From: an uncultured Lachnospiraceae bacterium
GTDB lineage: Bacteria > Bacillota > Clostridia > Lachnospirales > Lachnospiraceae
Assembly: GCA_947630595.1 (NCBI GenBank)
Contig: CANRIG010000032.1
Location: 1 to 33,602 of the forward strand
DNA length: 33,602 bases
Direction: 5' to 3'
Both the position numbers and the translations under genes were made by a program. Shown here in pieces: positions 5,288 to 25,769 of the stretch (positions within the stretch are counted from its first letter, which is position 1; each line of letters starts with the position of its first letter). Under the pieces are notes generated by a model, which ran no database searches, was not told the origin of the DNA, and saw only the letters and a list, made by a program, of their open reading frames with translations.

Positions 5288-6613
5288 ATGCTCCTTCTTC
5301 TGCTGCTGAGCGTGCTGCTCGCCTATCGCCTGCAGAAATTTATTTATCGCAGATTCTGGGACCGGAACCTGCAGGTGCAGACTTTCTTCACCGACAGTTA
5401 CGTGTATGAGGGCGATGCCTCCAGCCTGCGCGAGGAGATCGCCAATGACAAAAAGCTGCCTCTCCCGGCGCTTGAAGTGCGCCTTTCCATAAGCCGCGAC
5501 CTGGCGTTCACCGGCGAGGCGAAAGCCAACACCAATGTGACGGACCTGACCTACAAGCGTGATGTGTTTTCTTTCCTGTTTCATCAGAAAGTGATCCACA
5601 CGCTTCCTTTCGTCTGCCGGAAAAGGGGCTTTTATCAGATTTCCAATGTGGAAGTGCTCGGATATGATCTGTTTTTCAGCACGAAATACTATCTGAACGC
5701 CGCCCAGCAGACGCAGCTTTACGTTTATCCGGCGCAGGTCGACGCCGGCAGGATTCGCCTGATCTGCCAGACCGTCTCCGGTATGGTGCTGGTGCAGAAC
5801 CGGCTCTACCCCGATCCGTTTGAATTCTCCGGCATCCGCGAATACCGCCGCGATCCCATGCATCACATTAACTGGAAAGCGTCCGCGAGAAGCGGCTCCC
5901 TGATGGTCAATCAATTCGACTCCACCACCAGCATCCGCACAACCGTGATTCTGGATGTGGAGGATTCCCACATTCTGCGCAGCGAGCCGCTGACGGAAGA
6001 AAGCATCCGCATTGCCTCCTCTCTCGCCGCCCGGATGGTGAAGGAACACATGGAACTGCGGCTGGTCAGCAATGCTGTATTGTATGAGGATGCGCACGGC
6101 GGTTCCGATACTTTCAAGGATATGGACAGCAGCGCAGATATTTTCAGGAATATGCACAGCGGCCTGAGCGCGCCTGCGAATACATGCCGTGGCTCAGATG
6201 CTTTTAAAAATACAGACAGCAGAATAGATATTTCCGGGAATATACATGGTAATTCGGGTGTATCGGGAATTCAGAATCCGCAAACGCAGGAGGAACGTAT
6301 GTTTTTCGCCTGGCACGCCAAGCCCGGCGCGGGCCGCATCCATGAATTAAACCGCCGGCTCGCCCGCATCGACACGCATCGAACTGTCGCACCGATCAGT
6401 CAGCTTCTGCAAAAGGAGGCGGCAAACAGACCGGCCGGACAAATCTACGTCCTGATCTCCAAGAATCAGGACAGCGTTTCGATGGAGCTTCTGCGCGCCC
6501 TGTCCTCCGGAAATGAAATTCTGTGGGTGATTCCCATGGCTCCCGGGGAGGCTTTGCTTCACGCAAATGCGCCCGGAATCCGCATGATGCGCTGGGAGGT
6601 GAACACGGTATGA
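5288..6613 (+). CDS. DUF58 (MoxR-associated) protein with inserted repeat array
   Basis: A 441-residue DUF58 protein, the usual partner of MoxR. One N-terminal membrane-associated helix (LLLLLLSVLLAYRL) is followed by a beta-rich region. The DUF58 signature YRRDPMHHINWKASARSG lies near residues 190-210, with downstream EDSHILRSEPLTEESI of a vWA-like fold. Residues 273-322 are unlike the family: five 10-residue units of the form SDTFKDMDSS / ADIFRNMHSG, encoded by perfect 30-bp periods. After them the conserved-type fold resumes (MFFAWHAKPG onward). The gene begins immediately after the MoxR stop and its TGA overlaps the next ATG, so translation is coupled. The insert looks like an expanded linker, not a domain. 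Confidence 0.9.
   Translation: MLLLLLLSVLLAYRLQKFIYRRFWDRNLQVQTFFTDSYVYEGDASSLREEIANDKKLPLPALEVRLSISRDLAFTGEAKANTNVTDLTYKRDVFSFLFHQKVIHTLPFVCRKRGFYQISNVEVLGYDLFFSTKYYLNAAQQTQLYVYPAQVDAGRIRLICQTVSGMVLVQNRLYPDPFEFSGIREYRRDPMHHINWKASARSGSLMVNQFDSTTSIRTTVILDVEDSHILRSEPLTEESIRIASSLAARMVKEHMELRLVSNAVLYEDAHGGSDTFKDMDSSADIFRNMHSGLSAPANTCRGSDAFKNTDSRIDISGNIHGNSGVSGIQNPQTQEERMFFAWHAKPGAGRIHELNRRLARIDTHRTVAPISQLLQKEAANRPAGQIYVLISKNQDSVSMELLRALSSGNEILWVIPMAPGEALLHANAPGIRMMRWEVNTV
6104..6253 (+). repeat. In-frame 30-bp x 5 array inside the DUF58 gene
   Basis: Five 30-bp units (6104-6133, 6134-6163, 6164-6193, 6194-6223, 6224-6253) plus a decayed sixth keep exact length while sequence drifts. Units 1, 2, 4 and 5 share GATAYTTTCARGAATAYRSACAGC-like words; unit 3 is the most diverged. 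Translated, the consensus is roughly (S/A)D-I-F-K-N-M-D-S-G. Confidence 0.85.
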
Positions 6614-7881
6614 AAGAAAATCAGCAGTTAAAAATCCGAAAGCCGGAGGACAACCTGTGGCTCGCCGCGCTGGCCTGGATTCACATTCTGTTGCTCAACG
6701 GCGGAATCTATCTCCTGACCATCCTCATCGGGGAAACCAAGCAGCCGGCAACACTGCTGCTCGAAACACTGTGGCTGATCATCCCCCTTGTGCTCAGCTG
6801 GATTTTTATCCGTATGTTCCGCTCACTCGCCGTCTATCTGCTGGGCTCGTTCGCCGTGTGCGCGCTGCTTGCATGGCTCTCCCGCTCTGCCCTGACGGCT
6901 GTTCTCGCTGCGCTGATTCTGCTGGCGCGCTGCTATGTGCGCATCAAAAAAGGCCAGCTGAAACGCCTCATGATGGAAATGCCCGGCGAGGCCGGCGCGC
7001 AGTTCGCGCGCGAGCTGTGGGAAATCCCCACCTTTCTGGACCGTCCGTCCCCGGCGCACTGGGCTGTGTTCGCGGTCTATTACATCGCGTTTCTGCTGAC
7101 GCGGCACGATTACCTGCTGCGCTGGGTTTTCTTTCTGCTGCTCGCGGACGTCTTCGTCTGTTTCCTTTTTATCTATCTGGAACACATGCAGTATTTCATC
7201 CGTGAAAATCAGAAAATCGCCAACCTCCCGGTGCATTCCATCCAGAAGGTGGGGCGGATCCTGCTGCTCATCAGCACAATTCTCCTCGGGCTGATCGTAC
7301 TTCCCGCCTCGCTGTACGGCCGCGAACCACTGACCGGGCTGCGCGGCCTCATAAAACCGATTAAGCTCACGCTTCCCACGGATTTGGAACCGATGATGTC
7401 CGACCGCTTCTCCACGGCAGACTTCCTTCCGCCCGGCGAGGCTCCCGCCGAACCGCCCGTGTGGCTGGAAACCCTGAGCAGCCTGTTTATGTACCTGTGC
7501 ACCGCCGCGATTGCCGTCGCCCTGCTTGTCATCATCTACCGCGCCTGCCGCAACGCCCTGGCCTACTTCGCGCAGGACGAGGAGGATGAGATCATCTTTC
7601 TGGATGCGAACGAGATCAGCCTTGCGCAGCGCGGCACACGCGCACGCCGCGCTTCAAAAGAGCGCCGCAATTCGCCGAACCTGAAAATACGAAGATTCTA
7701 CAAAAAAACGCTCCGGCGCGCCATGAAAAAACGTCCGGACGGCTGGGAAACGCCCTCCGAGCTCGAAGCCAAAGCGGCGCTGACCCGGAACGCAGACACC
7801 GAAAATCTGCACGCGCTGTATGAAAAGGCCCGCTACAGCCGGGAGGGATGTACGGAGGAAGAGGCTGGAATGCTGCGGTGA
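6610..7881 (+). CDS. Polytopic membrane protein of MoxR/DUF58 operon, DUF4129-like C-terminus
   Basis: A 423-residue integral membrane protein. The ATG at 6610 overlaps the DUF58 stop (ATGA) and is preferred over an upstream in-frame ATG inside DUF58. About eight hydrophobic segments are seen, including LWLAALAWIHILLLNGGIYL, LWLIIPLVLSWIFI, LLRWVFFLLLADVFVCFLFI and LFMYLCTAAIAVALLVII. The cytoplasmic tail is very basic (RARRASKERR, FYKKTLRRAMKKR). It ends in a helix with LHALYEKARYSREGCT, similar to the C-terminus of DUF4129 proteins found beside transglutaminase-like MoxR partners. No transglutaminase core is present. Probably a membrane anchor or effector for the MoxR/DUF58 complex; its biochemical role is unknown. 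Confidence 0.8.
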   Translation: MKENQQLKIRKPEDNLWLAALAWIHILLLNGGIYLLTILIGETKQPATLLLETLWLIIPLVLSWIFIRMFRSLAVYLLGSFAVCALLAWLSRSALTAVLAALILLARCYVRIKKGQLKRLMMEMPGEAGAQFARELWEIPTFLDRPSPAHWAVFAVYYIAFLLTRHDYLLRWVFFLLLADVFVCFLFIYLEHMQYFIRENQKIANLPVHSIQKVGRILLLISTILLGLIVLPASLYGREPLTGLRGLIKPIKLTLPTDLEPMMSDRFSTADFLPPGEAPAEPPVWLETLSSLFMYLCTAAIAVALLVIIYRACRNALAYFAQDEEDEIIFLDANEISLAQRGTRARRASKERRNSPNLKIRRFYKKTLRRAMKKRPDGWETPSELEAKAALTRNADTENLHALYEKARYSREGCTEEEAGMLR

Positions 7882-7903
7882 AAGAACTGCCGGAAAATGC
7901 AGC

Positions 7904-7926
7904 GGGCTGTCGTTTTGCGACAGCCC
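7904..7926. terminator. Strong hairpin between convergent genes
   Basis: GGGCTGTCG (7904-7912), a TTTTG loop and CGACAGCCC (7918-7926) form a perfect 9-bp stem between the plus-strand MoxR operon and the minus-strand kinase gene. No T-run follows on the plus strand, and on the minus strand a TTTT comes only five bases later. It is either a weak bidirectional terminator or a 3'-end stabilising hairpin. Confidence 0.6.
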
Positions 7927-7936
7927 CCGATTCACC

Positions 7937-9091
7937 TTATTCCAAACTGTTTGTCAGAATCTCCAGCCTCTTGAAAAACATTTCTTTCCATTCCGGGGCC
8001 TTTTCAAAAACAGTCTCATCTATTTTTTTTATTTGATTCAATCCAACCTTTCTCACCGCTTCTATCGCGGCCTCTTTCTGAGTCATCTTCCTCGGAAAAA
8101 CCGTCTGACAGTTTGCGCCCTCTGTCGTATCATAGCTGTAAAAACTCTGGTTGAAATCCATAATGGGATAAAGTGCAACATATTGATTTGTCTCATTGTC
8201 TACCAGAAATCCCCAGTTCTCAGGATGCCTGTCCGTATTTCCGACTAAATAATCAATAATATTCATGCCATAATAAGTCATGCGGTCAATTTTTATACAT
8301 TCTTCTATGGTATTCAAATCATGATTACAGGCATAGATGTCAAACGCCATTTTGGACACAATCGAGTATCTTTTTGAAGTTACAATCCGGCTCTGCGTTA
8401 CTTTTTCTCCGGCATAAGCACTCTCCTGATACTTTACCTGACGAAACGCAAAATGCTGGCAAATCCTGCTGGCCAGAGCTTCTCTTTTTACCGCGTCTTC
8501 GCCTCCGTCTTTCAGAAGTATAAAACCTCCGTTTCTTCTGATCCACGCTTTGGGAAAACAGCCCTTTGTCGACAAATCCGGAGCCAGCTCCTCATTTGTA
8601 ACAGTCATCTGTTTTCCCCGCAAAGGAAGCTCCACAATCGCCTCCTGCAGAGGATTGTCATACAGATTAATATCCCGGAACGAAATAGTTTCTTCCTTTT
8701 TTTTCACCCAATAGACATCTGTCAGAGAAACACAGTGATAAGACAGAGAGATTTCAGCGCGATCCCGATCCGTCACAGCCTGTGCCACACCGATGCTGTT
8801 CAGTATTTCCTTTGCATATTTTCTGTCAAGCGACAGCACCCGCGAAGAACACCAATGATAAAAATTATTCAGATTATTGATGCATGCGTCAAAATCCTGC
8901 TCCTGCTCCAGATAAAGGTCGTAGGGGCAGAATTTTTCATTTTGAATCACCACACGCCCCACCGTACTGATTTCCGCTACAAGATCGTCTGCGTGCATAA
9001 TCTCGTAAACTACAGTTTTTTTATGCTTTCGGGCATCAAAATTTGCATTCAGATTATATATCGTGTCTTTCAGCAGCAAACCATCTTTCAC
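7937..9091 (-). CDS. HipA-like Ser/Thr kinase domain protein
   Basis: A 384-residue protein with a HipA_C-type kinase fold in its second half. The P-loop-like segment LSTKGCFPKAW lies at 173-183, the nucleotide-binding lysine is in FILLKDGG (Lys194), the catalytic loop is GNTDRHPENWG (Asp287, Asn292) and the metal-binding motif is MDFNQ (Asp312). The first 170 residues do not resemble the N-terminal subdomain of E. coli HipA; they contain NNFYHWCSSRVLSLDR and INLYDNPLQ. Start is a GTG with GGATGG upstream; no in-frame ATG lies between it and the upstream stop. No HipB-type HTH antitoxin is adjacent. A 44-codon ORF ends 19 bp upstream on the same strand and is probably cotranscribed. Base composition is more AT-rich than the flanking core genes, which suggests acquisition. 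Family members phosphorylate translation factors or tRNA synthetases; the target here is unknown. Confidence 0.8.
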   Translation of the reverse strand: MKDGLLLKDTIYNLNANFDARKHKKTVVYEIMHADDLVAEISTVGRVVIQNEKFCPYDLYLEQEQDFDACINNLNNFYHWCSSRVLSLDRKYAKEILNSIGVAQAVTDRDRAEISLSYHCVSLTDVYWVKKKEETISFRDINLYDNPLQEAIVELPLRGKQMTVTNEELAPDLSTKGCFPKAWIRRNGGFILLKDGGEDAVKREALASRICQHFAFRQVKYQESAYAGEKVTQSRIVTSKRYSIVSKMAFDIYACNHDLNTIEECIKIDRMTYYGMNIIDYLVGNTDRHPENWGFLVDNETNQYVALYPIMDFNQSFYSYDTTEGANCQTVFPRKMTQKEAAIEAVRKVGLNQIKKIDETVFEKAPEWKEMFFKRLEILTNSLE

Positions 9092-9110
9092 ATTATCACC
9101 ATCCGCCCCG

Positions 9111-9245
9111 CTATTGTTCCCGATAAACGGTATAATCTACCTTTCGCACTTTTCCTTTTCCCGGCATCTGTCCCTGCAGGCAGGTCCAAAAGGCAAAGTA
9201 AATACTCTTTCCATCTGCTTTCGCCAGCTCCGCGGGCTTTGCCAT
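9111..9245 (-). CDS. 44-residue leader ORF upstream of the HipA-like kinase
   Basis: A short ORF on the kinase strand, ATG at 9245 to TAG at 9111. Its start lies about 19 nt after the predicted transcription start, with GCGGGA as a possible ribosome site, and its stop lies 19 bp before the kinase GTG. The product begins MAKPAELAKADGKSIYFAFW, is basic, has one cysteine (FWTC), and ends in KGKVRKVDYTVYREQ. Codon use favours G/C third positions like the core genes, unlike the AT-rich kinase. I do not recognise the family. It could be the cognate small partner of the kinase, a translational leader, or the remnant of a longer gene. Confidence 0.5.
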   Translation of the reverse strand: MAKPAELAKADGKSIYFAFWTCLQGQMPGKGKVRKVDYTVYREQ

Positions 9246-9270
9246 TCCGGTTCCCGCTAAGAATGTCTTT

Positions 9271-9299
9271 ATTTTATCATGATGCGCTTATTTCAACAA
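9271..9299 (-). promoter_or_regulatory. Promoter for the leader ORF and HipA-like kinase
   Basis: On the minus strand TTGTTG (9299-9294), a 17-bp spacer and TAAAAT (9276-9271) form a fair sigma-A promoter. Transcription would begin near 9264, just upstream of the 44-codon ORF. The remaining 9300-9463 region between the divergent genes is AT-rich; I see no convincing promoter for the plus-strand ORF. Confidence 0.5.
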
Positions 9300-9475
9300 G
9301 ACAGTGGAGTTACTTTTTTCAGGTCATGATAATTCGATCGTTTAGCATACTCTTTTGATTAAGGAATTTTCAGTTTTCCCATCCTTTACTCCGTAAAATT
9401 ATTTATCCCGAAAAATCACCTACAAAATTTCTGTTGCCTACGCTTATATCACGATAGAAAGGAATGGGTACTCCG

Positions 9476-9697
9476 ATGGAATTAGACAAACATTATAACC
9501 TAACTGTAGGACTGCAGATTCGTGAAGTGCGTGGTATTATTCGCGGCAATCAACAGGGGCTTGAATCAGATATGCTAGTCGAAATGCTGCATACGATGGA
9601 CGACAAATCAAAATCGCATGCCGTCCGGATTCTTCGGGAATATGTCGAAGCTATCAATGAACTGCAGAAGAAAAATAATCCTGACGGAAAAAAATAA
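9476..9697 (+). CDS. Small hypothetical protein, 73 residues
   Basis: A short plus-strand gene divergent from the kinase. Two in-frame starts are possible. The ATG at 9464 has AAAGGA touching it, too close for use, whereas the ATG at 9476 has the same GAAAGGAATGGG tract about 7-12 bases upstream and is preferred. The product begins MELDKHYNLTVGLQIREVRG and ends in a long amphipathic helix (SKSHAVRILREYVEAINELQ) followed by a lysine/asparagine tail. It is predicted mostly helical and cytoplasmic. There is no recognised family and no clear HTH. A regulatory or antitoxin-like role beside the kinase is only a guess from position. Confidence 0.55.
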   Translation: MELDKHYNLTVGLQIREVRGIIRGNQQGLESDMLVEMLHTMDDKSKSHAVRILREYVEAINELQKKNNPDGKK

Positions 9698-9735
9698 TTA
9701 AAAAGCCTGCCTGGCCTGGCAGAACCATAAAAACA

Positions 9736-9766
9736 GGCTGTCCTCTCCATCATGGAAAAGACAGCC
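9736..9766 (-). terminator. Intrinsic terminator of the HExxH protein gene
   Basis: GGCTGTC (9736-9742) and GACAGCC (9760-9766) form a 7-bp stem with an inner TCCAT/ATGGA pairing. Read on the minus strand, the hairpin is followed by TGTTTTTATGG, giving a T-run. It sits just downstream of the gene ending at 9775. It shares its stem sequence with the hairpin at 7904-7926. Confidence 0.65.
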
Positions 9767-9774
9767 CATTTGGT

Positions 9775-10692
9775 TTATAAAATCTTTTTGTATTTTGATT
9801 TTTTCATCTCTGTGATAAGACTATCGTAATCGTCTTGGAAAATGCCGGTTCCATAACCGTCAATACGGTAGTAATCTCCGATCGATACGCTGTGGCCGTC
9901 TTTTTCAAGGATTTTGGCAATGCTCTTCATCTGCTTTTCAAATTTGGCAATCTGCGAAGCAAATTTCTTTTCGATGGTTGTGTAGGCTTTTACAAAACTC
10001 TTGTTTTTGACGATTCCATCGTAGACCGAACGGCTGTGCTGTTTCGCATACACCAGGTACTGCAGCATATAATATTTAAATTCCGAGTAGGCCAGCCGGT
10101 CATTCGCACATTTGTTTATGTAAGCAAGCCATTGACTGGAAGACGCATTATTTTTCTTAAAATAATCAAACAGTGACATCTGCGCGTGCATTCCCCAGTA
10201 GTACGCGGTAAATTCATTTAACAGACCATACACTCCTTCTACGTCCGAGCCCAGGTTCGCGACCGGATGTCCGACATAGGTGGACCAGCGGAACGTGCGG
10301 AGCTTCGATGGAATTGTCTGCGCCATGTTTTTGCTGCGGAAAACTTTCGTATAGGTAACTGTGATCCCTTTTTTGTTTCCCGTATAAATATTCTCAGAAT
10401 TCCATGATCCTTTCAAGTAGCTGTAGCCGTGAAATTCTTCGTGCACGGCTGTGTCAATTCCATCGGTTAAGGAATCAAAGCCTTTTGTCCACCACTTAAG
10501 AATATTATCTCCCTTTTTAGACATGGTGTCGAGAATATACGCCGCGTCCTTGTCATACTTATCCATCAGAGCCATCACATTCTTTTTCGTGACGGCTGCA
10601 TTCATTTTGGGCAACGCGGCAAAAGCCGTCTGTCCCGTCAGCAGAAACAGCAGCATGCACAGGCTGAGCAGCCCAAGAATCTTTTTCTTCAC
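9775..10692 (-). CDS. Secreted zinc-metallopeptidase-like protein (HExxH)
   Basis: A 305-residue exported protein of no family I recognise. The GTG at 10692 is preferred because GGAGGGAGGAAAG lies just upstream; an in-frame ATG seven codons earlier overlaps that site. The signal peptide is KKKILGLLSLCMLLFLL, ending at a TAFA cleavage site. A zinc-binding motif HEEFH is present at residues 84-88 within TAVHEEFHGYSY, and NEFTAYYWG (Glu160) could supply the third ligand of a gluzincin-type site. The C-terminal half is lysine-rich and helical (KKFASQIAKFEKQMKSIAKI). Function is inferred from motifs alone: an extracellular or envelope peptidase, or an inactive relative. It lies downstream of rnpB with a weak promoter of its own (TTGTAT, 17 bp, TATAAG on the minus strand) and has a terminator after it. 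Confidence 0.75.
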   Translation of the reverse strand: MKKKILGLLSLCMLLFLLTGQTAFAALPKMNAAVTKKNVMALMDKYDKDAAYILDTMSKKGDNILKWWTKGFDSLTDGIDTAVHEEFHGYSYLKGSWNSENIYTGNKKGITVTYTKVFRSKNMAQTIPSKLRTFRWSTYVGHPVANLGSDVEGVYGLLNEFTAYYWGMHAQMSLFDYFKKNNASSSQWLAYINKCANDRLAYSEFKYYMLQYLVYAKQHSRSVYDGIVKNKSFVKAYTTIEKKFASQIAKFEKQMKSIAKILEKDGHSVSIGDYYRIDGYGTGIFQDDYDSLITEMKKSKYKKIL

Positions 10693-10743
10693 AGACTTTC
10701 CTCCCTCCGTCATTGCCGTCCAGTATCAAATGACGGCCTGTTC

Positions 10744-10785
10744 CATTCATAAAAATTCCACTTATAAAATATCATTCATAAAAAT
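10744..10785. repeat. Three 14-15 bp AT-rich repeat units
   Basis: The word CATTCATAAAAAT occurs at 10744-10756 and 10773-10785 with the related CACTTATAAAATAT between, making three head-to-tail units of 14-15 bp. It lies between the 3' end of rnpB and the HExxH gene, and overlaps the possible promoter of the latter. Confidence 0.6.
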
Positions 10786-10795
10786 ACAAAAAAGT

Positions 10796-11142: not shown

Positions 11143-11149
11143 GGAGCTG

Positions 11150-11178: not shown

Positions 11179-11181
11179 CCG

Positions 11182-13343: not shown

Positions 13344-14129
13344 TCAGATCACCGCAAACGGCTGCAAAAGCTGCGCTTTCCGCACTTCAAGCTCCGGGAA
13401 TGTCTCCCGCAGGTAATCTGCCATCTGTCCGATAAAAATATGTTCAATTCCGTAATGGCCGGCGTCGATCACCAGCAGATTCTGATCTACGGCATCCAGT
13501 CCGTCATGATGGCCGATGTCCCCGGTCACCAGAAGCTCCGCCCCCGAGGCCAGCGCCGGGGCGATCATGCTTTTCCCGGAACCGGGCGAGACCGCAATTC
13601 TCCGCACGCGGGCCTGCGGGTCGCCGAACAGCCGCACAGAGTCAAGCCCGAACGCCTTTTTCACGTAATCACAGCATTCCTTTGCCGTCATCGCCTCCGG
13701 CAGGCTCCCGACAAACCCGACTCCGCACGCGGTTCCGTCCTCCAGCGTGCCTGTCCGCTCCAAAATCTCCGTATCAGCAAGCCGCATGGCGTCCTCCGCC
13801 AGCCTTGCCATCTCCGTCACATCGTAATTTGTGTGCATCGCATAATGCGCAATCCGGTGCTCCGCCAGCGTCAGCACCTTGCCGCCCAGAAATTCTTCGC
13901 TGTTTATTTTCTTAATCCCGGACATCAGCAGCGGATGATGCGTCACCAGCAAATCCGCTTTCCAGGCCACGCAGGCCTGCAGTACCTCCTGCGTCGCGTC
14001 CAGCGCCACATATACTTTCTGCACTTCCTGCTCCATGCGGCCCACCTGCAGGCCGGGATTATCCCAGGGAAGCGCCAGCTCCAGCGGGTACTTCGCCTTT
14101 AAATTCGCAATGATTTCGCTTAATCTCAT
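13344..14129 (-). CDS. Nif3-like dinuclear metal-binding protein (YqfO type)
   Basis: A 261-residue Nif3/GTP-cyclohydrolase-I type 2 family protein. Metal-ligand motifs are visible: WDNPGLQVG near residue 22, LLVTHHPLL near 60-70, HYAMHTNYD near 95-105, and a C-terminal HYGIEH that completes the site. It lacks the roughly 100-residue middle insert of B. subtilis YqfO. Its ATG overlaps the TrmK stop (ATGA), which is the usual arrangement after trmK in Firmicutes. The enzymatic role of the family is not firmly established; it is found widely and is likely cytosolic. Confidence 0.93.
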   Translation of the reverse strand: MRLSEIIANLKAKYPLELALPWDNPGLQVGRMEQEVQKVYVALDATQEVLQACVAWKADLLVTHHPLLMSGIKKINSEEFLGGKVLTLAEHRIAHYAMHTNYDVTEMARLAEDAMRLADTEILERTGTLEDGTACGVGFVGSLPEAMTAKECCDYVKKAFGLDSVRLFGDPQARVRRIAVSPGSGKSMIAPALASGAELLVTGDIGHHDGLDAVDQNLLVIDAGHYGIEHIFIGQMADYLRETFPELEVRKAQLLQPFAVI

Positions 14130-15055
14130 GATGTATATCCCTCCGCTTCTTTTCCCGAATACAGTTCCAGCCCTTCCTCAATCAGCCGCAGTTCCTGCCT
14201 GACCTCCGCGGCTCTCTGCAGCGCCGCCCCGCCGGTCTGCCCCTCCAGCGCGCGCAAAATCCGGCGGTGCAGTTCCCGTTCACGCAGCAGATAGGCGTGC
14301 AGCACCGGGTGACGTGTACGCAGCAAACACGGGCCGAAACACAGTTCCAGCTCTGTCATCCTGAGCTCTGCATTGTTCTGTGCTGTCATTCCTGTCAGCG
14401 ACGTCTCCTCGGCCTCTTGTTCCGTCGTCCCCGGCAACCGTGTCTCTCCTATATTCTGATCTGATGCTTTCGGCAATATCATCTCCACAGCATCCTGATC
14501 TGCCTCTTTCAACAATACTTCCTCTCCAGTATCCCGTCCTGGTTTTCCTGTCAGCAGTATCTTGTCGGCAAACACTCCCGCCCCAGGCACAGCCCGCATC
14601 ATCGGGTAATATTTTCCGTCCTCGCAGACCATCTCCTCGCGCACGATCCGCCAGCCTTTTTGCTCCAGATACGCGCGCACCAGACGAATCTCCGACTGCG
14701 GCTGCAAAATCAGCTCCCGGCAGCCGGCCAGGCGGTCTTTGCCCTCCGTGAGAATGCGGACCGTCAGCGGCCCGCCCATGCCGGCGATCACGATGCAATC
14801 CGCCTCGCCGGGGGCGAGCGCCGTCAGCCCGTCCGAGAGGCGGGTCTCTATCTTTTCACTCAGTCCGCGGGCTTCAATGTGGGCGCGGGCGCGCGCAAGC
14901 GGCCCGGCGTTGACGTCCATGGCGACCGCCCGCGGTATGATTCCGTTTTCCATTAAAAAAATCGGTATGTATGCATGATCGGTGCCTATGTCCGCGACCC
15001 GGCTGCCGGAAGTTACCATATCAGCCACCGCCTGCAGGCGTCTTGAAATCTGCAT
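14126..15055 (-). CDS. trmK: tRNA (adenine22-N1)-methyltransferase with repeat insertion
   Basis: TrmK methylates N1 of A22 in the D-loop of tRNA using S-adenosylmethionine. The Rossmann motif VADIGTDHAYIPIFL is at residues 20-34, the acidic AVAMDVN at 43-49, and the catalytic-region CIVIAGMGG at 87-95. The C-terminal half with LILQPQSEIRLVR is typical. At 309 residues it is about 70 longer than the B. subtilis enzyme. The excess is explained by residues 168-232, five 13-residue units of low complexity (for example LPGTTEQEAEETS) encoded by exact 39-bp periods. After the array the conserved C-terminal coiled coil resumes (LELCFGPCLLRTRHP). The insert sits at a surface turn between the catalytic and coiled-coil domains, so activity may survive. 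A GGGAGGAAG ribosome site supports the start; the gene follows rpoD by 15 bp. Confidence 0.93.
   Translation of the reverse strand: MQISRRLQAVADMVTSGSRVADIGTDHAYIPIFLMENGIIPRAVAMDVNAGPLARARAHIEARGLSEKIETRLSDGLTALAPGEADCIVIAGMGGPLTVRILTEGKDRLAGCRELILQPQSEIRLVRAYLEQKGWRIVREEMVCEDGKYYPMMRAVPGAGVFADKILLTGKPGRDTGEEVLLKEADQDAVEMILPKASDQNIGETRLPGTTEQEAEETSLTGMTAQNNAELRMTELELCFGPCLLRTRHPVLHAYLLRERELHRRILRALEGQTGGAALQRAAEVRQELRLIEEGLELYSGKEAEGYTS
14360..14554 (-). repeat. In-frame 39-bp x 5 array inside trmK
   Basis: Five units of exactly 39 bp encode 13 residues each: LTGKPGRDTGEEV, LLKEADQDAVEMI, LPKASDQNIGETR, LPGTTEQEAEETS and LTGMTAQNNAELR. Sequence identity between units is modest, but the period is perfect and each starts with leucine. 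The product is acidic and probably unstructured. Confidence 0.85.
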
Positions 15056-19152: not shown

Positions 19153-21678
19153 TTATTTTTTTGAATTTTTCAAAATTTTGTAGGGCTCGACGGAATACGC
19201 CGTCCCGTCCGAGCGAATCGTGACCGCGCCGCACTGCGCCGTCTCAAAAATCCGCGCGCCCGCCTGCCGCAGCCGCTCCACAGTCTCCGGCGCCGGATGG
19301 CCGTAGCGGTTGCCGCGCCCGCACGAGATCACCGCCGCGCCGGGCCGCACCCGTTCCAGAAACGGCTCCGAGCTGGCGGCCGCCGAACCATGGTGACCTG
19401 CCTTGAGGACATCGGCGCGCAGATCCGCCTCCGTATCCGTCAGGCGCTGTTCCGCCTTGCCCTCCAGGTCGCCGGTAAACAGCATCCGAAACTGGCCATA
19501 GGCAAGCATCAGCACCATGGAATCCTCGTTGCGCTCGCCGTAAAGGGCCGCCTCATCCGGGGACAGGCAGGTGATTTTCCAGGAGGGCTTCGGCTTTGTG
19601 CGAAAATGGCTTCCTGTTTTGTCCCTTTGGCCTTCACGGAACGGACTCTCTGATCTGTTGTTTCCTGCCGCAAGCGTGTCGCCCGCCTTCATCCACTGTA
19701 CTGCAATCCCGTTCTTTGCCGCCAGCGTCTCCAGCTCCACAAAGTCCTCCCGCTCCGCAGCCGGCGGCAGCACCAGGCAGCCCAGTGTCACGCCGTGTAT
19801 GTTTTCCCCGGCAAAGCCCGGCTCGTATTCCTGCAGGTATTCCATCACCCCGCTGATGTGGTCGCGGTCGGCGTGCGACAGGAAAATATAGTCCAGCTTG
19901 CGGATACCGAAATATTTCACCGCCTGCCCGATGCGGTAGCGCCACAGCTCAGACTCCGTGCTGCTGCCGCCGTCGATCAGGCAGTTTGTGCCGTCCGGCA
20001 GGCGCAGCAGCGCCCCGTCGCCCTGTCCCACGTCCAGGCAGATGATTTCCAGGTCATGGCGGCCGCGGACGGTCATCGTGCTCATGCACAGGAGAATACA
20101 AAGCAGCCACAGGAGCCGCTGCGCGGGGATACCCGTCATCCATATCTTTTTCTTCCACGCAGTTTTTATCCCGACCAGTCTTATACCTTGTCCAGCCGAC
20201 ATCCTGCCGGAACCTGTGCTCCTACCAACCAACATTCCGCCGAAACCTGTACTCTGTCTAACCGGCATCCCGCCCTTTCTGCCCGCTTTCCTCCCGCACT
20301 CTGCTCTCCTCCGCGCCTGGCAGGCCCGCCCCGCAAACACCGTCATCGCCAGCAGCAGCCCGTAATACGCGCAGATTCTGCCCGCAGAGGGCCGCCCGGC
20401 CACATACAGCGCCAGCGGCAGCCTCTGCTGCCACCGGCACAGAAGCTCAAAGCAGGACAGCAGATAATGCACGGGAGCGGCCAGAAACGTTCCCACCGGC
20501 ACCGACAGCAGACCCGCAAAGGCGGCGGTCAGGCCGGTCACCAGAAGCACGGAGGTCAGGGGAACCACCGCCAGATTGACCAGCGTGCTCCACAATGGCG
20601 TCTGATAGTAAAAATACAGCACGCAGGGCAGCATGCCCGCGAAAATCGCTGCGCCGGACAGGAGCGTCCTCCCGGCCGCGCTGCGGATGCCGCAGCTTTT
20701 CTGAGCGGCGGGCGCCAGCACCGCCAGCGACAGCACGGCGCCGAACGACAGGTAAAACGAGGCCTGCCCGAGGTGGTCTGCGCCGGCCAGCAGCAAAATC
20801 GCCGCCGCCAACGCCGCCGCGGTCAGCCGGTCGTACCTGCGGCCCCACACCTGCGCGCACAGCCACAGCCCGAACATCAAAAGCGCGCGCACCGCGGACA
20901 CCGCCGCGCCGGCCATCAGCACGTAAAACAGCGCCGCCGCGCCGGAAATCCCGGCAGCAGCGCCAAACGAAAGGCCCAGCCTGCGGCAGAGGCGGTACAG
21001 CCCGATGCCGGCCAAGGAAATGTGCAGGCCGGAAATCGCCAGGATGTGCGCGATGCCGCCCTCCTGATAGAGCGTCTTCCACTCCGATTCCATCCAGGCC
21101 CGTTCGCCGAGGCTGACGGCCGCGAGCGTGCGTGCCTGCCGCTCTCCGAGAATCCGCGCGCAGGAATCGCGCAGGGCGGCGCGCACCCGGTACAGAAAGC
21201 GCTTTAATCCGGGCTTTCCCCGCCGCACTTCCAGCAGTTCGGCCTCCCGCAGGCGGCCGACGGTGCGCTGTCTGAAATAATGGGACTGCAGATCAAACTG
21301 CCCGGGATTGGAGGATGGTTCAAAGGCTTTCAGCTTTCCTGACGCCAGAATGGCATCGCCGGGCAAAATTCCCCGTTCTTCCGTTGTAAGCAAAAGGTTC
21401 CATGTGGGTAACAAAGATATCTGCGAACCGTTTTTTTGTCGAATGGTAAGATGACTGACAGACAGGCGAATGCCTGAAGATACTGCGCTGCACTGCGCCG
21501 CGGTCCCGGAAACCGTCACGTCCTGATCCTCCGGAACCGCTTCCGAAAGCGCGGCCGCCGCCTGCGGCGGGGCGTTCGCCCTCTGTCCATCCGCGGCATA
21601 CAGCGCTGCCATAACCGCCGCCAGCGCCGCGCAAAGGCACGCCAGCGGCCGTTTATCCGGTAATACTCTGTTTCTCAT
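19153..21678 (-). CDS. comEC: ComEC/Rec2 DNA-uptake channel protein
   Basis: An 841-residue ComEC-type protein for transport of single-stranded DNA across the membrane. The N-terminal region holds an OB-like domain (DQDVTVSGTAAQCSAV and LPGDAILASGKLKAFEP). The competence domain has the signature HILAISGLHISLAGIGLYRL and many membrane helices. A C-terminal metallo-beta-lactamase domain starts at IICLDVGQGDGALLRLPDG with the metal motif SHADRDHISG and later GHHGSAAASSEPFL. Between the membrane and lactamase domains lies an inserted run with three 11-residue repeats. A second unusual insert lies in the lactamase domain (RSESPFREGQRDKTGSHFRT). The gene is separated from comEA by the two-component genes and the GerM-like gene. 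The ATG has a weak ribosome site. Full-length and probably functional unless the inserts disturb it. Confidence 0.93.
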   Translation of the reverse strand: MRNRVLPDKRPLACLCAALAAVMAALYAADGQRANAPPQAAAALSEAVPEDQDVTVSGTAAQCSAVSSGIRLSVSHLTIRQKNGSQISLLPTWNLLLTTEERGILPGDAILASGKLKAFEPSSNPGQFDLQSHYFRQRTVGRLREAELLEVRRGKPGLKRFLYRVRAALRDSCARILGERQARTLAAVSLGERAWMESEWKTLYQEGGIAHILAISGLHISLAGIGLYRLCRRLGLSFGAAAGISGAAALFYVLMAGAAVSAVRALLMFGLWLCAQVWGRRYDRLTAAALAAAILLLAGADHLGQASFYLSFGAVLSLAVLAPAAQKSCGIRSAAGRTLLSGAAIFAGMLPCVLYFYYQTPLWSTLVNLAVVPLTSVLLVTGLTAAFAGLLSVPVGTFLAAPVHYLLSCFELLCRWQQRLPLALYVAGRPSAGRICAYYGLLLAMTVFAGRACQARRRAECGRKAGRKGGMPVRQSTGFGGMLVGRSTGSGRMSAGQGIRLVGIKTAWKKKIWMTGIPAQRLLWLLCILLCMSTMTVRGRHDLEIICLDVGQGDGALLRLPDGTNCLIDGGSSTESELWRYRIGQAVKYFGIRKLDYIFLSHADRDHISGVMEYLQEYEPGFAGENIHGVTLGCLVLPPAAEREDFVELETLAAKNGIAVQWMKAGDTLAAGNNRSESPFREGQRDKTGSHFRTKPKPSWKITCLSPDEAALYGERNEDSMVLMLAYGQFRMLFTGDLEGKAEQRLTDTEADLRADVLKAGHHGSAAASSEPFLERVRPGAAVISCGRGNRYGHPAPETVERLRQAGARIFETAQCGAVTIRSDGTAYSVEPYKILKNSKK
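20173..20271 (-). repeat. In-frame 33-bp x 3 array inside comEC
   Basis: Three units of exactly 33 bp encode GMPVRQSTGFG, GMLVGRSTGSG and RMSAGQGIRLV. The conserved methionine codon recurs at 33-bp intervals (20266, 20233, 20200). The array lies in the linker between the membrane channel and the extracellular-type lactamase domain. Confidence 0.8.
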
Positions 21679-21704
21679 GATTTCTGTTATTTCTTAATAC
21701 TGCT

Positions 21705-22673
21705 TTACGGTTTTTCCGTCTCCGCCTGCCGCGGAAGCTCCGTCTCGATCTCGTCGCGCTCGATGACCTCCCGGTTCATCATAAAGAACTGGTTCAGGTC
21801 GACCTCGCCCCGGAACAGGGTTTCGCTCTCGCCGTCGATCTCAAAGCGGACGCTGGTGATATCGTCGCAGGTCTCGCAGATGGAATCCACAATCGCATAC
21901 AGGGCCGCCGTCGCGTCGAGCGGCTGCTCCGACGGCGTGCGGTTCACCTCCGCGTCAAAATTGATCGTGCAAACGCCGTCCTGCGTGTACAGATTCTGAA
22001 TGCGCACGCCCTCCGTGAGCACCGGCCTCAGCCCGGACTCTTCCGGCCCCGCGATCAGCTGCTCCACGACCATGCGCTCCAGCACCATGTTGCTGGAAAA
22101 ATGCAGGTTGCGCCGTTCCCGCACCAGCCGTTCCCCGCTCTCGTCTGCAAAGTACAGAGACAGCGTCGCGTACTGGTAGGAGTTGATGCCTCCCTCTTTC
22201 GTGTCAATGAAGGAATCCGCGTCCATCGCCGGCACCGGCTTTCCCTCCAGATCGTGGAGCTGTTCCCCGCCGACCGTGATCATCACGCCGGCGACGCCGG
22301 GCACCTGCGAGAACGTCTTGACCACCGCCGCCCGCAGAAGCACCTCGTCCGTGTTGCTCAGATCGTAATATTCCCCGGAAAAGTCGATGCGCAGAGCGTC
22401 GATGCCGCGCTCGTAGCCGTTAAACGTCACATTTTCCGGGACGGCGCTGACAAAACCGGAGGGAGCGTTCTGCAGCTCGCGCTGAAGCTCCTCCACCATC
22501 TCCTCAAAGGTCTGCGCCTGAGGGCGGTAACTGGCCTCCATCAGCCGCGTCCGCGACGTGTTGACATAATATACCGTATAGCTGTTGTCTTCCTCTTTTT
22601 TGCGGCTGCCGCACCCGGTCAGCAAAAGGAGCGCCAGAAAAAGCAGACAGCCGAACATCTTTCTTTTCTTCAC
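21705..22673 (-). CDS. GerMN-domain lipoprotein (sporulation/germination type)
   Basis: A 322-residue lipoprotein. The GTG at 22673 is preferred over an adjacent TTG because AGGAGG lies five bases upstream. The signal is VKKRKMFGCLLFLALLLL with lipobox LTGC. Two GerMN-like repeats follow, each with a VNTSRTRLMEA or SLYFADESGERLVRE strand and a VVKTFSQVPGVAGVMI or DATAALYAIVDSICETC segment. GerM proteins act in sporulation and spore germination near the forespore membrane; GerMN domains also occur in other envelope proteins, so this role is likely but not certain. It lies 22 bp after the sensor kinase and 27 bp before comEC, suggesting cotranscription. Confidence 0.85.
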   Translation of the reverse strand: MKKRKMFGCLLFLALLLLTGCGSRKKEEDNSYTVYYVNTSRTRLMEASYRPQAQTFEEMVEELQRELQNAPSGFVSAVPENVTFNGYERGIDALRIDFSGEYYDLSNTDEVLLRAAVVKTFSQVPGVAGVMITVGGEQLHDLEGKPVPAMDADSFIDTKEGGINSYQYATLSLYFADESGERLVRERRNLHFSSNMVLERMVVEQLIAGPEESGLRPVLTEGVRIQNLYTQDGVCTINFDAEVNRTPSEQPLDATAALYAIVDSICETCDDITSVRFEIDGESETLFRGEVDLNQFFMMNREVIERDEIETELPRQAETEKP

Positions 22674-22694
22674 CAATGCCTCCTGTCCGCGCGC

Positions 22695-24113
22695 CTACGG
22701 CACATATTTCAGAGGAATACGCACCGTAAAGGTGGTGCCTTCCCCCTCCTTGCTGTAGACCTTGATCGCCCCGTGGTGCATCAGCACCGCGCTCCTGGTG
22801 ATCGCCAGCCCCAGCCCGGTGCCGCCGATCTCCCGCGAATGCGATTTGTCCACGCGGTAAAAGCGCTCGAAAATATGCTCCTGGTCCTCCTCCGGGATGC
22901 CGATTCCGGAGTCCTCCACTTTGACATAGAAATATTTGCTGTCCACATTCAGGGAAACGTGCACCCAGCCCTGCGGGCGGTTGTACTTGATGCCGTTCTC
23001 CACCAGGTTCGACAGCGCCAGCGTCAGCTTGGTCTCGTCGACCTCCGCGGTCACCGGCTTGAAGCTCTCCAGCACCAGCTCCACCTCCTGCCGCGCCGCA
23101 ATCGGGCGCAGGCGCTTTAAGATCAGCTCGATGAGCTGGTTGATGTTGGTCTCCTGAATATTGACGTCCGACGAACGCCTGTCCATCTTGACGAGGGACA
23201 GAAGGTCGGAAATGATTTTGTTTTCGCGGTCGATCTCCTCCGCGATATCCGCCATAAACTCCCGGTAGAGCTCGTTCGGCACGTCGTCCTGCGCCAGCAG
23301 AGAATCCGCCAGCACCTTCATCGAGGTGATCGGCGTTTTCAGCTCATGGGAGACGTTGGAGACAAACTGCTGCCGCGAATCTTCCTGCACCTTCATGCGG
23401 TTCAGCATGCGGTTGTAAGCCTCGGAGAGCAGCTTCGTCTCCGTGTAGTCCGGAATCGAAATCTCCTGCTCCGTCACGCCGCCGCGCACTTCTTCCAGGG
23501 ACCGCGTGATTTTGCCGAACGGCTTGGTGAGCACGCGCGCCACATAATAGGCGGCCGCAATGATCAGCAGGGTAAGCACGACCTGCAGAATCAGCACCGT
23601 ATTCCCCAGCGTGTCTTTTCCGTCCCGGACGTCCTGCGTGGACACGCTGACGATCATAATGCCCTCAATGTCGCGCGTCTGCGCGTCGCGCACCGGCAGC
23701 GTCAGCTCGAGAAATTCAAAATCCTGATTGTAATTGGTGGAATCCGTCCCCAGGAAGCACTGCAGCACCTCCTCAGAGATGATCACCTTGTCCTCATCGA
23801 TTCCGAACGTGTCGCGGATGATGCGGAAATTGCTGTTGACAATGATCACGCGCCCGTTGTAAATGCTCCCGAGCTGCACCAGCTGGCGGTCGACCTGCTC
23901 CGTGGCCTCCGTCCTGTTCCAGATGTAGCCGGAGCTGGCCACCTGGTCCACAATCTGTTGGCACTGGCTCTGAATCAGCGCGCTTTTCTGCTCGACCGCC
24001 TGATCCGCATAGTTGTCAAGAATCAGGTTTTTCATCAGGAAAATCGGAATCAGGCCGACCAGCAGCACAATCACAAAGATACGCGCGCGCAGGCTCTTGA
24101 GATAGCCCCGCAC
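22695..24113 (-). CDS. Membrane sensor histidine kinase (WalK/PhoR-like)
   Basis: A sensor kinase with TM1 at IFVIVLLVGLIPIFLMKN, an extracytoplasmic sensor of about 140 residues, TM2 at VLILQVVLTLLIIAAAYYVA, a HAMP domain, HisKA (FVSNVSHELKTPITSMKVL, phospho-His in SHELKTP) and HATPase (NLVENGIKYN, DSGIGIPEEDQEHIFERF, GGTGLGLAI). The start is uncertain. The GTG at 24113 has AAGGA four bases upstream and lies just after the response-regulator stop. A TTG at 24143 or an ATG at 24164, both overlapping the regulator, would add 10 or 17 residues. It lacks a PAS domain between HAMP and HisKA, unlike B. subtilis WalK. Partner of the adjacent regulator; the stimulus is unknown. Confidence 0.92.
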   Translation of the reverse strand: MRGYLKSLRARIFVIVLLVGLIPIFLMKNLILDNYADQAVEQKSALIQSQCQQIVDQVASSGYIWNRTEATEQVDRQLVQLGSIYNGRVIIVNSNFRIIRDTFGIDEDKVIISEEVLQCFLGTDSTNYNQDFEFLELTLPVRDAQTRDIEGIMIVSVSTQDVRDGKDTLGNTVLILQVVLTLLIIAAAYYVARVLTKPFGKITRSLEEVRGGVTEQEISIPDYTETKLLSEAYNRMLNRMKVQEDSRQQFVSNVSHELKTPITSMKVLADSLLAQDDVPNELYREFMADIAEEIDRENKIISDLLSLVKMDRRSSDVNIQETNINQLIELILKRLRPIAARQEVELVLESFKPVTAEVDETKLTLALSNLVENGIKYNRPQGWVHVSLNVDSKYFYVKVEDSGIGIPEEDQEHIFERFYRVDKSHSREIGGTGLGLAITRSAVLMHHGAIKVYSKEGEGTTFTVRIPLKYVP

Positions 24114-24120
24114 CGTGTCC

Positions 24121-24810
24121 TTAATGCTGGAAATAATAACCAACTCCCCACTTCGTATGTACATACTTGGGCTCGCTCGGATTTGCCTCAATCTTCTCGC
24201 GCAGTCTGCGGATATGCACGTCCACGGTCCGCACGTCGCCCGGATACTCGTAGCCCCACACAATGTTCAGCAGGTTTTCGCGGCTGTAGACCTTGTTGGG
24301 ATTGAACACCAGAAGCTCCAGCACGTCGAATTCCTTGGCCGTAAGGTTGACCTCGCGGCCGCCGATGCTCACCCTGCGGCCCTCGCAGTCGATGGCCAGG
24401 TCGCCCACCTCGACCGTCTTTCCCTTCGGCTCCGGCGCCGGCTTCTGCGCCGTCCGCCGCATGATCGCTTTCAGGCGCGCCTTGACCTCGAGGATGTTGA
24501 ACGGCTTGGTGATATAATCGTCGGCTCCGTATTCCAGGCCCATGATCTTATCCATATCGTCGCCCTTTGCCGTCAGCATCACGATCGGCACATCGGAAAA
24601 TTCACGAATCTGCTGGCATACCTCGAGACCGTCCAGTTTTGGCAGCATCAGGTCCAGAAGAACGATATCGTATTCCTTATCCCGCGCCATGCGCACGGCT
24701 TCCTCGCCGTCGTAGGCGCAGTCCACCTCCATATCGTCTTTTTCCAGACTGAAACGGATTCCTTTCACAATCAGTTTTTCGTCATCCACAACCAAAACTT
24801 TCTTGCTCAT
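24121..24810 (-). CDS. OmpR/PhoB-family response regulator (WalR-like)
   Basis: A 229-residue winged-helix regulator. The receiver domain has the phosphorylation site at Asp53 in LLDLMLPKLDG, acidic residues VDDEKLI at the N-terminus and the conserved lysine in DYITKPF. The DNA-binding domain spans about 130-229, with LTAKEFDVLELLVFNPNKVY, YEYPGDVRTVDVHIRRLREK and a terminal TKWGVGYYF wing. A GAAGGA ribosome site precedes the start. The sequence is close in style to WalR/YycF of Clostridia, but no yycH, yycI or walJ genes accompany it, so I do not assign a name. It is first gene of the pair and follows comEA by 26 bp. Confidence 0.94.
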   Translation of the reverse strand: MSKKVLVVDDEKLIVKGIRFSLEKDDMEVDCAYDGEEAVRMARDKEYDIVLLDLMLPKLDGLEVCQQIREFSDVPIVMLTAKGDDMDKIMGLEYGADDYITKPFNILEVKARLKAIMRRTAQKPAPEPKGKTVEVGDLAIDCEGRRVSIGGREVNLTAKEFDVLELLVFNPNKVYSRENLLNIVWGYEYPGDVRTVDVHIRRLREKIEANPSEPKYVHTKWGVGYYFQH

Positions 24811-24836
24811 CTACATTCCTTCTTTCCCTGCTTTGT

Positions 24837-25769
24837 TCACACGGTAATCTGCTCTTTAATCTTTGCAAATACGCCGCCCTTGATGCCCCGTATCTTCTGT
24901 ATCTCCTCAATGGCGGAAAACGCGCCGTGCTCCTCGCGGTAGGCGATCACAGCCTCCGCCTTTGCCTCGCCGATGCCCGGCAGGGTCATCAGTTCTTCCT
25001 TGGTGGCGCGGTTCAGGTTGATCTTTCCGGGCGCTGCGTCCGATGCGGCCTCCGTCCGCGTCTGCCCGGGCATCGTCTCCGCCCACAGCGGCCCCGGCGG
25101 GGCCATGCTCTCCGGCGGCAACATACCTGCCGTTTCCTCCGCCTGCTCCCGCAGCCGTTTTGTCTCCGCGCGGCTGTAAACGTAAAGCCGCTGCCCGTCG
25201 GCCAGGACCTGGGCCTGGTTGAGCCATTCCCGGTCCGCTTCCTCCATGAATCCCCCGGCCAGTTCCAGCGCCTCGAATACCCGCATCCCATCGCCGAGCG
25301 GGTAAACGCCGGGATGCGCCACCGCCCCGCACACATACACGTAGCCGGCGGATTCCTCTGCACCTGCTGCCGTTACATCATTTCCGACAGTTCTTCCTGC
25401 ACCTGCTGCAATTACATCATTTCCGGCAGTTCTTCCTGCCTCTGCTACAGTTACATCTTTTCCGACAGAATTTCCTGCTTCTGCTGCAGTTACATCATTT
25501 CCAGCTGAGTTTCCTGCACCTGCTGCAGCTGCATCATTTCCGGCAGTTCTGCCTGCTTCTACTGCAGTCATTCTGTTCCCGACATCTCCGTCCGTTCTGT
25601 CCGCAGACCAGCCGTCCATACCGGTCACAGCAGCACCCGCATCCTCCGCCAACTCTCCGCTCTCCCCGGCAGGCGAAAAATACGCCTCCCGCTGGCCGGA
25701 ACAGCCGCACAGAACAAGCAGCAGCACAAACAACAGGGCCATCATGCTTCCCTGATTTTGATTTCGCAT
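24837..25769 (-). CDS. comEA: ComEA-like lipoprotein: SLBB plus helix-hairpin-helix, with repeat insertion
   Basis: A 310-residue exported DNA-binding protein. The signal peptide MALLFVLLLVL ends at lipobox LCGC, so it is likely a lipoprotein; ATG codons at positions 9-10, with AGGGA upstream, are possible alternative starts. Residues 64-141 are six 13-residue repeats of the GNDVTAAEAGRTA type. An SLBB beta-grasp follows (YVYVCGAVAHPGVYPLGDG at about 143-200). The C-terminal ComEA HhH pair is KINLNRATKEELMTLPGIGE and IEEIQKIRGIKGG. ComEA binds incoming double-stranded DNA outside the membrane for delivery to ComEC. The repeat acts as a long flexible tether between the lipid anchor and the folded part. 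comEC lies three genes downstream on the same strand. Confidence 0.92.
   Translation of the reverse strand: MRNQNQGSMMALLFVLLLVLCGCSGQREAYFSPAGESGELAEDAGAAVTGMDGWSADRTDGDVGNRMTAVEAGRTAGNDAAAAGAGNSAGNDVTAAEAGNSVGKDVTVAEAGRTAGNDVIAAGAGRTVGNDVTAAGAEESAGYVYVCGAVAHPGVYPLGDGMRVFEALELAGGFMEEADREWLNQAQVLADGQRLYVYSRAETKRLREQAEETAGMLPPESMAPPGPLWAETMPGQTRTEAASDAAPGKINLNRATKEELMTLPGIGEAKAEAVIAYREEHGAFSAIEEIQKIRGIKGGVFAKIKEQITV
25347..25580 (-). repeat. In-frame 39-bp x 6 array inside comEA
   Basis: Six units of exactly 39 bp, total 234 bp, encode residues 64-141. Units read GNRMTAVEAGRTA, GNDAAAAGAGNSA, GNDVTAAEAGNSV, GKDVTVAEAGRTA, GNDVIAAGAGRTV and GNDVTAAGAEESA. Units 2-5 are the most alike, with decay at both ends. 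This is the best conserved coding array in the window. Confidence 0.93.

What the first reader, a model, noticed from the sequence alone, without database searches (positions are those of the whole stretch)
6104..25580. Strict-period, degenerate tandem repeats inserted in frame in four conserved proteins
DUF58 (30 bp x 5), TrmK (39 bp x 5), ComEC (33 bp x 3) and ComEA (39 bp x 6) each carry an array whose unit length never changes while its sequence drifts. All lie in linkers or surface turns, and all periods are multiples of three. TrmK and ComEA share the 39-bp period although unit sequences differ. Intergenic arrays nearby use non-triplet periods (14, 22, 71 bp). The pattern suggests an active, genome-wide process that makes new arrays from local sequence, filtered by selection for frame. 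I know of no named mechanism for this.
Basis: partly seen in the sequence, partly recalled or inferred. Interest (0 to 1): 0.8.

Follow-up and report, generated by a model that had tools for sequence, protein, structure and literature searches.

The report
In-frame minisatellites crowding a Lachnospiraceae genome
A gut bacterium carries many short stretches of its own DNA repeated head to tail, and the ones found inside genes are almost all those that keep the reading frame and lie in floppy linkers; this looks like an unusually dense case of a known process rather than a new mechanism.

Summary
The four arrays are real: 0 of 2000 triplet shuffles matched each, though DUF58 has one barely recognisable unit and ComEC only 2.5-3 copies. 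They belong to a genome-wide pattern: 85 arrays in a 400-kb sample, 0 in shuffles. At periods up to 60 the density is 16.0 per 100 kb, against 8.1 in genus mates at the comEC locus, 4.4 in family and phylum samples, 2.8 in two genus-mate isolates and 0 in 100 kb of E. coli. Frame filtering is sharp: 44 of 45 coding periods are triplet, 9 of 34 non-coding. Units are nearly all private to their locus. Sites in relatives are often empty or hold unrelated sequence. This genome's RecJ holds a 39-bp array where 17 of 17 readable relatives have no insert. Similarity between units falls with distance, as stepwise slippage or unequal exchange predicts. Notable are the density and the housekeeping proteins hit. 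The cause of the density is unknown.

The parts
6101..6250 (+). 30-bp x 5 in-frame array in the DUF58 gene (5288-6613)
   Evidence: z 10.4, 0/2000 shuffles; of five relatives at 80-84% identity two lack any insert and three hold other inserts at the site
14368..14562 (-). 39-bp x 5 in-frame array in trmK (14126-15055), protein about 164-229
   Evidence: z 9.5, 0/2000; insertion against the shortest orthologues, 231-240 aa versus 309; pLDDT below 50 at 164-229
20176..20274 (-). 33-bp x about 2.5-3 in-frame array in comEC (19153-21678)
   Evidence: z 7.7; linker between Competence and Lactamase_B; the same linker is 20-99 aa long in genus mates
25335..25568 (-). 39-bp x 5.4-6 in-frame array in comEA (24837-25769), protein 68-137 by my scan
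   Evidence: TRF score 254; (z 19); before SLBB; pLDDT below 50 at 24-137
5..158 (.). non-coding array, 14-bp unit (best as 42 bp), at the contig start
   Evidence: also at the start of contig C17
353..500 (.). non-coding 71-bp array
   Evidence: 88% identical array in C17
4180..4308 (.). non-coding array, about 22-bp unit with indels
   Evidence: 12% indels
29799..29898 (+). 21-bp array in the gene 28775-30025, probably coiled-coil heptads and not of the same kind (inference)
   Evidence: a weak leucine-zipper match below its cut-off at residues 365-397

Best explanation
The arrays are ordinary minisatellites. A short local stretch of about 10-130 bp is duplicated in tandem by slipped strand misalignment or unequal exchange, and further steps duplicate neighbouring units. 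Point mutations then make the units drift apart while their length stays fixed. Inside genes, almost only arrays whose unit is a multiple of three survive, and they sit mostly outside conserved domains; between genes any period survives. This lineage has a large stock of them, so even conserved proteins (TrmK, ComEC, DUF58, ComEA, Rho, RecJ) carry them. Shown: locus-private units, frame filter, position outside domains, presence or absence between species, decay of similarity with distance along the array. Inferred: the molecular step (slippage or unequal exchange) and the reason for the high density.
For: Excess over shuffles: 85 against 0 in 400 kb. Frame: 44/45 coding and 9/34 non-coding periods divisible by three; 54/57 and 7/12 in genus mates. 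Units private to the locus for 17 of 21 cross-array matches, 3 more being one element at two contig starts. In 40 arrays with at least 4 units, excess identity falls from +0.044 at lag 1 to -0.082 at lag 6; adjacent units exceed the array mean in 33 of 40. Twelve species pairs gave 44 arrays, 26 with alignable flanks: 4 of 26 have the same length in the partner, 22 differ by at least 3 bp, and in 18 of 26 the period is undetectable there (a shared array counts from both sides). RecJ: 17 of 17 readable relatives lack the insert; in three of them (L194-L196) the homologous stretch resembles the start of the unit. In 19 of the 23 scanned sample proteins that had a Pfam match, the arrays are clear of the best listed stretch of every family. 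Adjacent-unit mismatch by codon position 0.13, 0.15, 0.27: some selection on the peptide.
Against: Few near-perfect arrays: 1 of 45 coding and 5 of 34 non-coding exceed 95% identity. Fresh arrays should be perfect; short-read assemblies may collapse or break at them, which was not tested. Singly, only 6 of 40 arrays reach permutation P<0.05 for neighbour similarity, and edge units are hardly more divergent than inner ones (0.738 against 0.746). The second half of the RecJ unit is not seen in relatives. Many linker inserts in RecJ and MutS2 of relatives show no periodicity, so not every insert is a visible array. MutS, RecJ and XseA are present, so loss of these does not explain the density.
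Confidence: 0.8

Rival explanations
1. The arrays are copies of a dispersed mobile repeat (MIRU-, REP- or RPE-like) that lands in frame in genes.
For: Several unrelated genes carry inserts at recurrent sites; one repeat-rich element is present at two contig starts.
Against: Units of different loci do not match in the sample: of 21 cross-array matches, 17 are within one locus, 3 are the contig-start element, 1 is 15 bp long. The sample is about 13% of the genome (400 kb plus the window).
Confidence: 0.04
2. The repeats are selected protein features (flexible or functional repeat segments) kept for a purpose, not tolerated by-products.
For: Adjacent-unit mismatch is higher at third codon positions (0.27 against 0.13 and 0.15), so the peptide is constrained; some coding arrays are likely genuine protein repeats (21-bp arrays in L057:8293-12639 and the window gene 28775-30025; choline-binding repeats in L063:3223-5214).
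Against: Sites are empty in some close relatives and filled with unrelated peptides in others; non-coding arrays are about six times denser per base than coding ones (34 in about 48 kb against 45 in about 385 kb).
Confidence: 0.1
3. The arrays arise in a single burst (rolling-circle-like or template-switching synthesis by an error-prone polymerase) and are degenerate from birth.
For: Nearly all arrays are degenerate, including arrays whose period is missing in partners of 82-89% identity.
Against: Unit similarity decays with distance along the array, which a one-step burst followed by independent mutation does not predict. Substitution pairs were counted without normalisation (414 of 667 are transitions), so base-specific mutation was not tested.
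Confidence: 0.07
4. Assembly artefacts of a fragmented, possibly metagenome-assembled draft.
For: The genome is in 151 contigs; most named relatives are MAGs; arrays stand at the starts of two contigs.
Against: The frame filter (44 of 45) cannot come from assembly errors; other assemblies, two genomes with strain names among them, also have arrays, if fewer; 5 of 85 arrays lie within 1 kb of the sampled contig starts, about what 1 kb of 20 kb predicts.
Confidence: 0.02

Closest known systems
Prokaryotic satellites / minisatellites (Subirana and Messeguer 2019, PMC6749651; outline, first fifth of the text and sections 9, 11 and 13 read)
   Same: Tandem units of 10-200 nt, many unique to their locus, long units mostly multiples of three and likely coding; the authors attribute their birth to anomalies of DNA replication.
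   Different: My uncalibrated imitation of their rule gives 30 per Mb here (12 in 400 kb) against 23.0 per Mb for the densest bacterial replicon in their Table 1 (B. pseudomallei chromosome II) but 89 per Mb for the archaeon Methanosarcina vacuolata. Most arrays here are too short or degenerate for their rule (12 against 85 by my scan); many sit in linkers of conserved proteins.
VNTR / MIRU loci of bacteria (recalled)
   Same: Minisatellites, coding and non-coding, with copy number differing between lineages.
   Different: MIRU units are shared between loci (recalled); here units are private to each locus in the sample. Within-species variation could not be tested.
Low-complexity regions and linkers of prokaryotic proteins (PMC6821194; abstract start and passages seen)
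   Same: Flexible, biased-composition segments that may be generated by slippage, recombination and repair.
   Different: Here a unit of 4-43 residues with a strict period is still visible.
Rickettsia palindromic elements inserted in frame in genes (recalled)
   Same: In-frame inserts in conserved proteins at tolerant positions.
   Different: Those are dispersed element families; here no sequence is shared between loci in the sample.

Membership tests
Minisatellite (tandem unit of about 10-200 bp) | head-to-tail copies of a constant-length unit beyond chance | tested here: met
   all four arrays 0/2000 triplet shuffles; 85 against 0 in 400 kb
Minisatellite (tandem unit of about 10-200 bp) | unit private to the locus | tested here: met
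   within a sample of about 13% of the genome
Prokaryotic satellite in the sense of PMC6749651 | a decamer repeated at least 4 times within 800 nt with at least 60% identical spacing | tested here: not met
   by my approximate rule only ComEA of the four has a decamer repeated 4 times (spacing 39, 78, 39); DUF58, TrmK and ComEC have none
VNTR | copy number varies between strains of one species | not testable with these tools
   one genome per species held; between species, 22 of 26 arrays with alignable flanks differ in length
Dispersed mobile repeat (MIRU/REP/RPE-like) | same unit at many loci | tested here: not met
   within the sample
Known protein repeat families / coiled coil | match to a repeat domain model over the array | tested here: not met
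   no Pfam match over the four arrays; elsewhere choline-binding repeats do cover one coding array

The most novel reading that the evidence does not exclude
This lineage is a tandem-duplication mutator: some feature of its replication or repair raises the birth rate of 10-130-bp tandem duplications several-fold, so that array birth is a major source of protein-length evolution in housekeeping genes. RecJ, one of the exonucleases reported to stabilise tandem repeats, has itself been hit by a 91-residue insert with an array, which might feed back on the rate.
Probability: 0.15. Interest if true: 0.65.

Novelty: new member of a known kind. Interest (0 to 1): 0.4.

Why it matters
It gives a natural bacterial set in which frame filtering, spread and decay of minisatellites can be read side by side in coding and non-coding DNA, and shows that short in-frame arrays appear in or vanish from linkers of conserved proteins on the time scale of species divergence. 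If the high density reflects a raised mutation rate, the genus would be a natural model for what controls tandem duplication in bacteria.

Tried and rejected
Dispersed repeat family: not borne out by unit comparison in the sample. Meaning of the shared 39-bp period: rejected, two of four random coding arrays share a period in 26% of draws. Loss of MutS, RecJ or ExoVII: all three are present in the window's genome. RecJ insert size as the cause of array density across the genus: no correlation (32 genomes, rho 0.05, p 0.80); G022, the relative with the highest density at the comEC locus, has a RecJ match in one piece. GC content: rho 0.18, p 0.29 over 36 loci. The listings of the paper searches showed no title on tandem repeats in Lachnospiraceae genomes; that is a statement about these listings (best rows only) and not about the literature.

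Rows dropped or weak: 12 of 91 arrays straddle gene edges in my crude gene caller and are left out of the frame count; DUF58 is among them because the caller preferred an antisense frame over 4337-6157. TrmK and ComEC lie below the scan threshold of 18 and are in none of the density or frame counts. 18 of 44 arrays in the species pairs had unalignable flanks; one of the 12 pairs (L086/L097) gave no array. In one search the longest frame taken for L193 and L194 was the wrong strand or doubtful, and long N-terminal extensions in L209 and L212 are doubtful; these rows are not used. 2 of 19 RecJ relatives (L205, L206) were not read by the motif pattern. L227 (MutS) was fetched and not analysed. 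Of the 31 host genes of coding arrays, 27 were scanned window genes; L051:18967-19158 and L063:2208-3023 were not scanned. Of the 27, 4 had no Pfam match; in 4 of the other 23 an array overlaps a listed stretch (L047, by 2 residues; L063:13870-15090, by 9; L063:3223-5214; L057:8293-12639). The tool lists only the best stretch of a family, so a second MatE stretch in L055:18074-19699 could not be placed. The densities compare unlike samples: own genome = first 20 kb of its contigs C1-C20; isolates = stretches of one contig each; family and phylum = dnaG loci; E. coli = 100 kb. In the phylum sample 11 of 15 arrays with period 76 or more coincide with tandem tRNA genes, hence the comparison at periods up to 60. 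The script printed its density table and then ended with an error in a later print; redid that print.
Full report
Where it is. The window is the whole of contig C32 of a 3.31-Mb genome in 151 contigs.

The four arrays. They are there and are not chance. Two are very degenerate: mean unit identity is 0.53 in TrmK and DUF58, and Tandem Repeats Finder at score 30 lists neither. ComEC's array has about 2.5 clear copies. One intergenic array (4180-4308) has 12% indels and is not strict.

Genome-wide excess. An ungapped self-shift scan (match +1, mismatch -1.5, periods 9-130, score at least 18) found 85 arrays in 400 kb (the first 20 kb of contigs C1-C20) against 0 in dinucleotide shuffles made in 500-base blocks. 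Densities per 100 kb: own sample 21.2; window 17.9; 36 genus mates at the comEC locus 9.8 (24 of 36 loci with at least one); two genus-mate isolates 3.4; three other genus mates 7.5; 20 other genera of the family at the dnaG locus 5.0; 20 genomes of the phylum 8.6; E. coli 1.0 (one array in 100 kb). Eleven of the 15 phylum arrays with period 76 or more are pairs of tRNA genes. At periods up to 60 the figures are 16.0 (own sample), 8.9 (window), 8.1 (genus at comEC), 2.8 (isolates), 2.5 (three others), 4.4 (family), 4.4 (phylum) and 0 (E. coli). The samples are unlike, so the two- to six-fold excess is approximate; genus mates vary from 0 to 37 per 100 kb at one locus. GC content does not explain the variation (rho 0.18, p 0.29).

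Frame filter. With a simple hexamer gene caller, 45 of 91 arrays (own sample plus window) lie in genes, 34 between genes and 12 across edges. Periods divisible by three: 44 of 45 coding, 9 of 34 non-coding. In genus mates: 54 of 57 coding, 7 of 12 non-coding. Non-coding DNA is about 11% of the sample but holds 34 of 91 arrays. This is what a frame-blind process filtered by selection predicts.

Local origin. Comparison of all 91 arrays gave 21 cross-matches: 17 between pieces of one locus, 3 between the window's first 500 bases and a similar element at the start of contig C17, and one of 15 bp between unrelated loci. RecJ is a case seen by accident: it was searched as a repair gene, its match proved to be broken by an insert, and the insert, 91 residues, holds a 39-bp array. 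In 17 of 17 relatives that could be read the stretch has no insert; in three of them (L194, L195, L196) the homologous peptide resembles the first half of the unit, while its second half is not seen in relatives. Of this genome's other repair genes looked at, MutS and XseA matched in one piece and MutS2 had only a weak period (score 13.5). In ComEC of G008 about five 18-bp units stand where the sister G039 has one.

Turnover. Of five relatives with 80-84% identity in DUF58, two have no insert at the site and three hold other inserts without detectable period. The ComEC linker between its two Pfam domains is 20-99 residues long, with arrays of different period in different species, and a second ComEC site behaves alike. 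Twelve species pairs were aligned; 11 gave 44 arrays, 26 with alignable flanks; 4 of 26 had the same length in the partner, 22 differed by at least 3 bp, and in 18 of 26 the period was undetectable in the partner. The closest pair (96% identity) kept its one detected array at the same length. So arrays differ on the scale of species; births were not separated from losses, and within-species change is not shown.

How they grow. In 40 arrays with at least four units, excess identity falls steadily from +0.044 for neighbours to -0.082 at six units apart, and neighbours are more alike than the array mean in 33 of 40, though only 6 of 40 reach P<0.05 alone. Stepwise duplication of neighbours, by slippage or unequal exchange, gives this; one burst of copies does not. 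Edge units are hardly more divergent than inner ones (0.738 and 0.746). Higher-order periods (42 = 3 x 14, 90 = 3 x 30, 117 = 3 x 39) also point to multi-unit duplication. Between adjacent units the mismatch rate is 0.13, 0.15 and 0.27 at codon positions 1, 2 and 3, so the peptide is somewhat constrained. Only 6 of 79 coding and non-coding arrays are above 95% identical; loss of perfect arrays in short-read assembly is one possible reason, not tested.

Where in proteins. AlphaFold2, with 8 sequences per alignment, shows the TrmK array as a low-confidence segment, 164-229, between two confident parts, and ComEA's array inside a low-confidence stretch, 24-137, of a poor model. Twenty-seven array-bearing proteins of the sample were scanned with Pfam; 23 had a match, and in 19 of 23 the arrays are clear of the listed stretches: for example between Rho_N and the Rho RNA-binding domain, between the membrane and ATPase parts of an ABC transporter, in a histidine kinase before HisKA, between the two parts of a dehydratase-activase fusion, and between two glycosyltransferase domains. 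The four exceptions are a 2-residue and a 9-residue overlap, true choline-binding repeats, and 21-bp arrays that look like coiled-coil heptads. A genus mate has a 30-bp array in RpoD.

Cause of the density. MutS, RecJ and XseA are present in this genome. Single-strand exonucleases including RecJ are reported to stabilise tandem repeats (PMC3942315, passages seen), so the array inside RecJ is tempting, but RecJ insert size does not track array density in 32 genomes (rho 0.05, p 0.80). The cause remains open.

Known or new. Subirana and Messeguer (PMC6749651; parts read) surveyed satellites in 261 prokaryotes, report that many are unique, that long units are mostly multiples of three, and ascribe their birth to replication. 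By a rough, uncalibrated imitation of their rule this genome has 30 per Mb (12 in 400 kb) against 23.0 for the densest bacterial replicon of their Table 1 and 89 for Methanosarcina vacuolata. The finding is therefore a dense new case of a known kind.

Noticed in passing
L188 (G000:C17:23100-25400), array at C17:24096-24247: RecJ of this genome carries a 91-residue in-frame insert with a 39-bp array; 17 of 17 readable relatives lack it.
   Followed up: partly
window 1-612 and L060 1-726 (start of contig C17): Two contigs begin with copies (86-90% identical over the long matches) of the same repeat-rich element with 14/42-bp and 71-bp arrays.
   Followed up: partly
window 690-4176: Three consecutive recombinase-like genes beside that element (the first and third confirmed as serine recombinases with Pfam; the second by resemblance only), perhaps the end of an integrated mobile element.
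   Followed up: no
L087 6333-6432 (locus coordinates after orientation as): The sigma factor RpoD of genus mate G039 has a 30-bp x 3.3 array just before its RMYLKEIGR stretch; sister G008 has the same length with the period almost gone.
   Followed up: partly
L045:3739-5466: Transcription terminator Rho of this genome has a 102-bp-period array at residues 106-166, between its N-terminal and RNA-binding domains.
   Followed up: no
RecJ of genus mates: Matches break near model positions 146-149 and 364-369 in many genus mates, so inserts recur there; most show no period, perhaps decayed arrays.
   Followed up: partly
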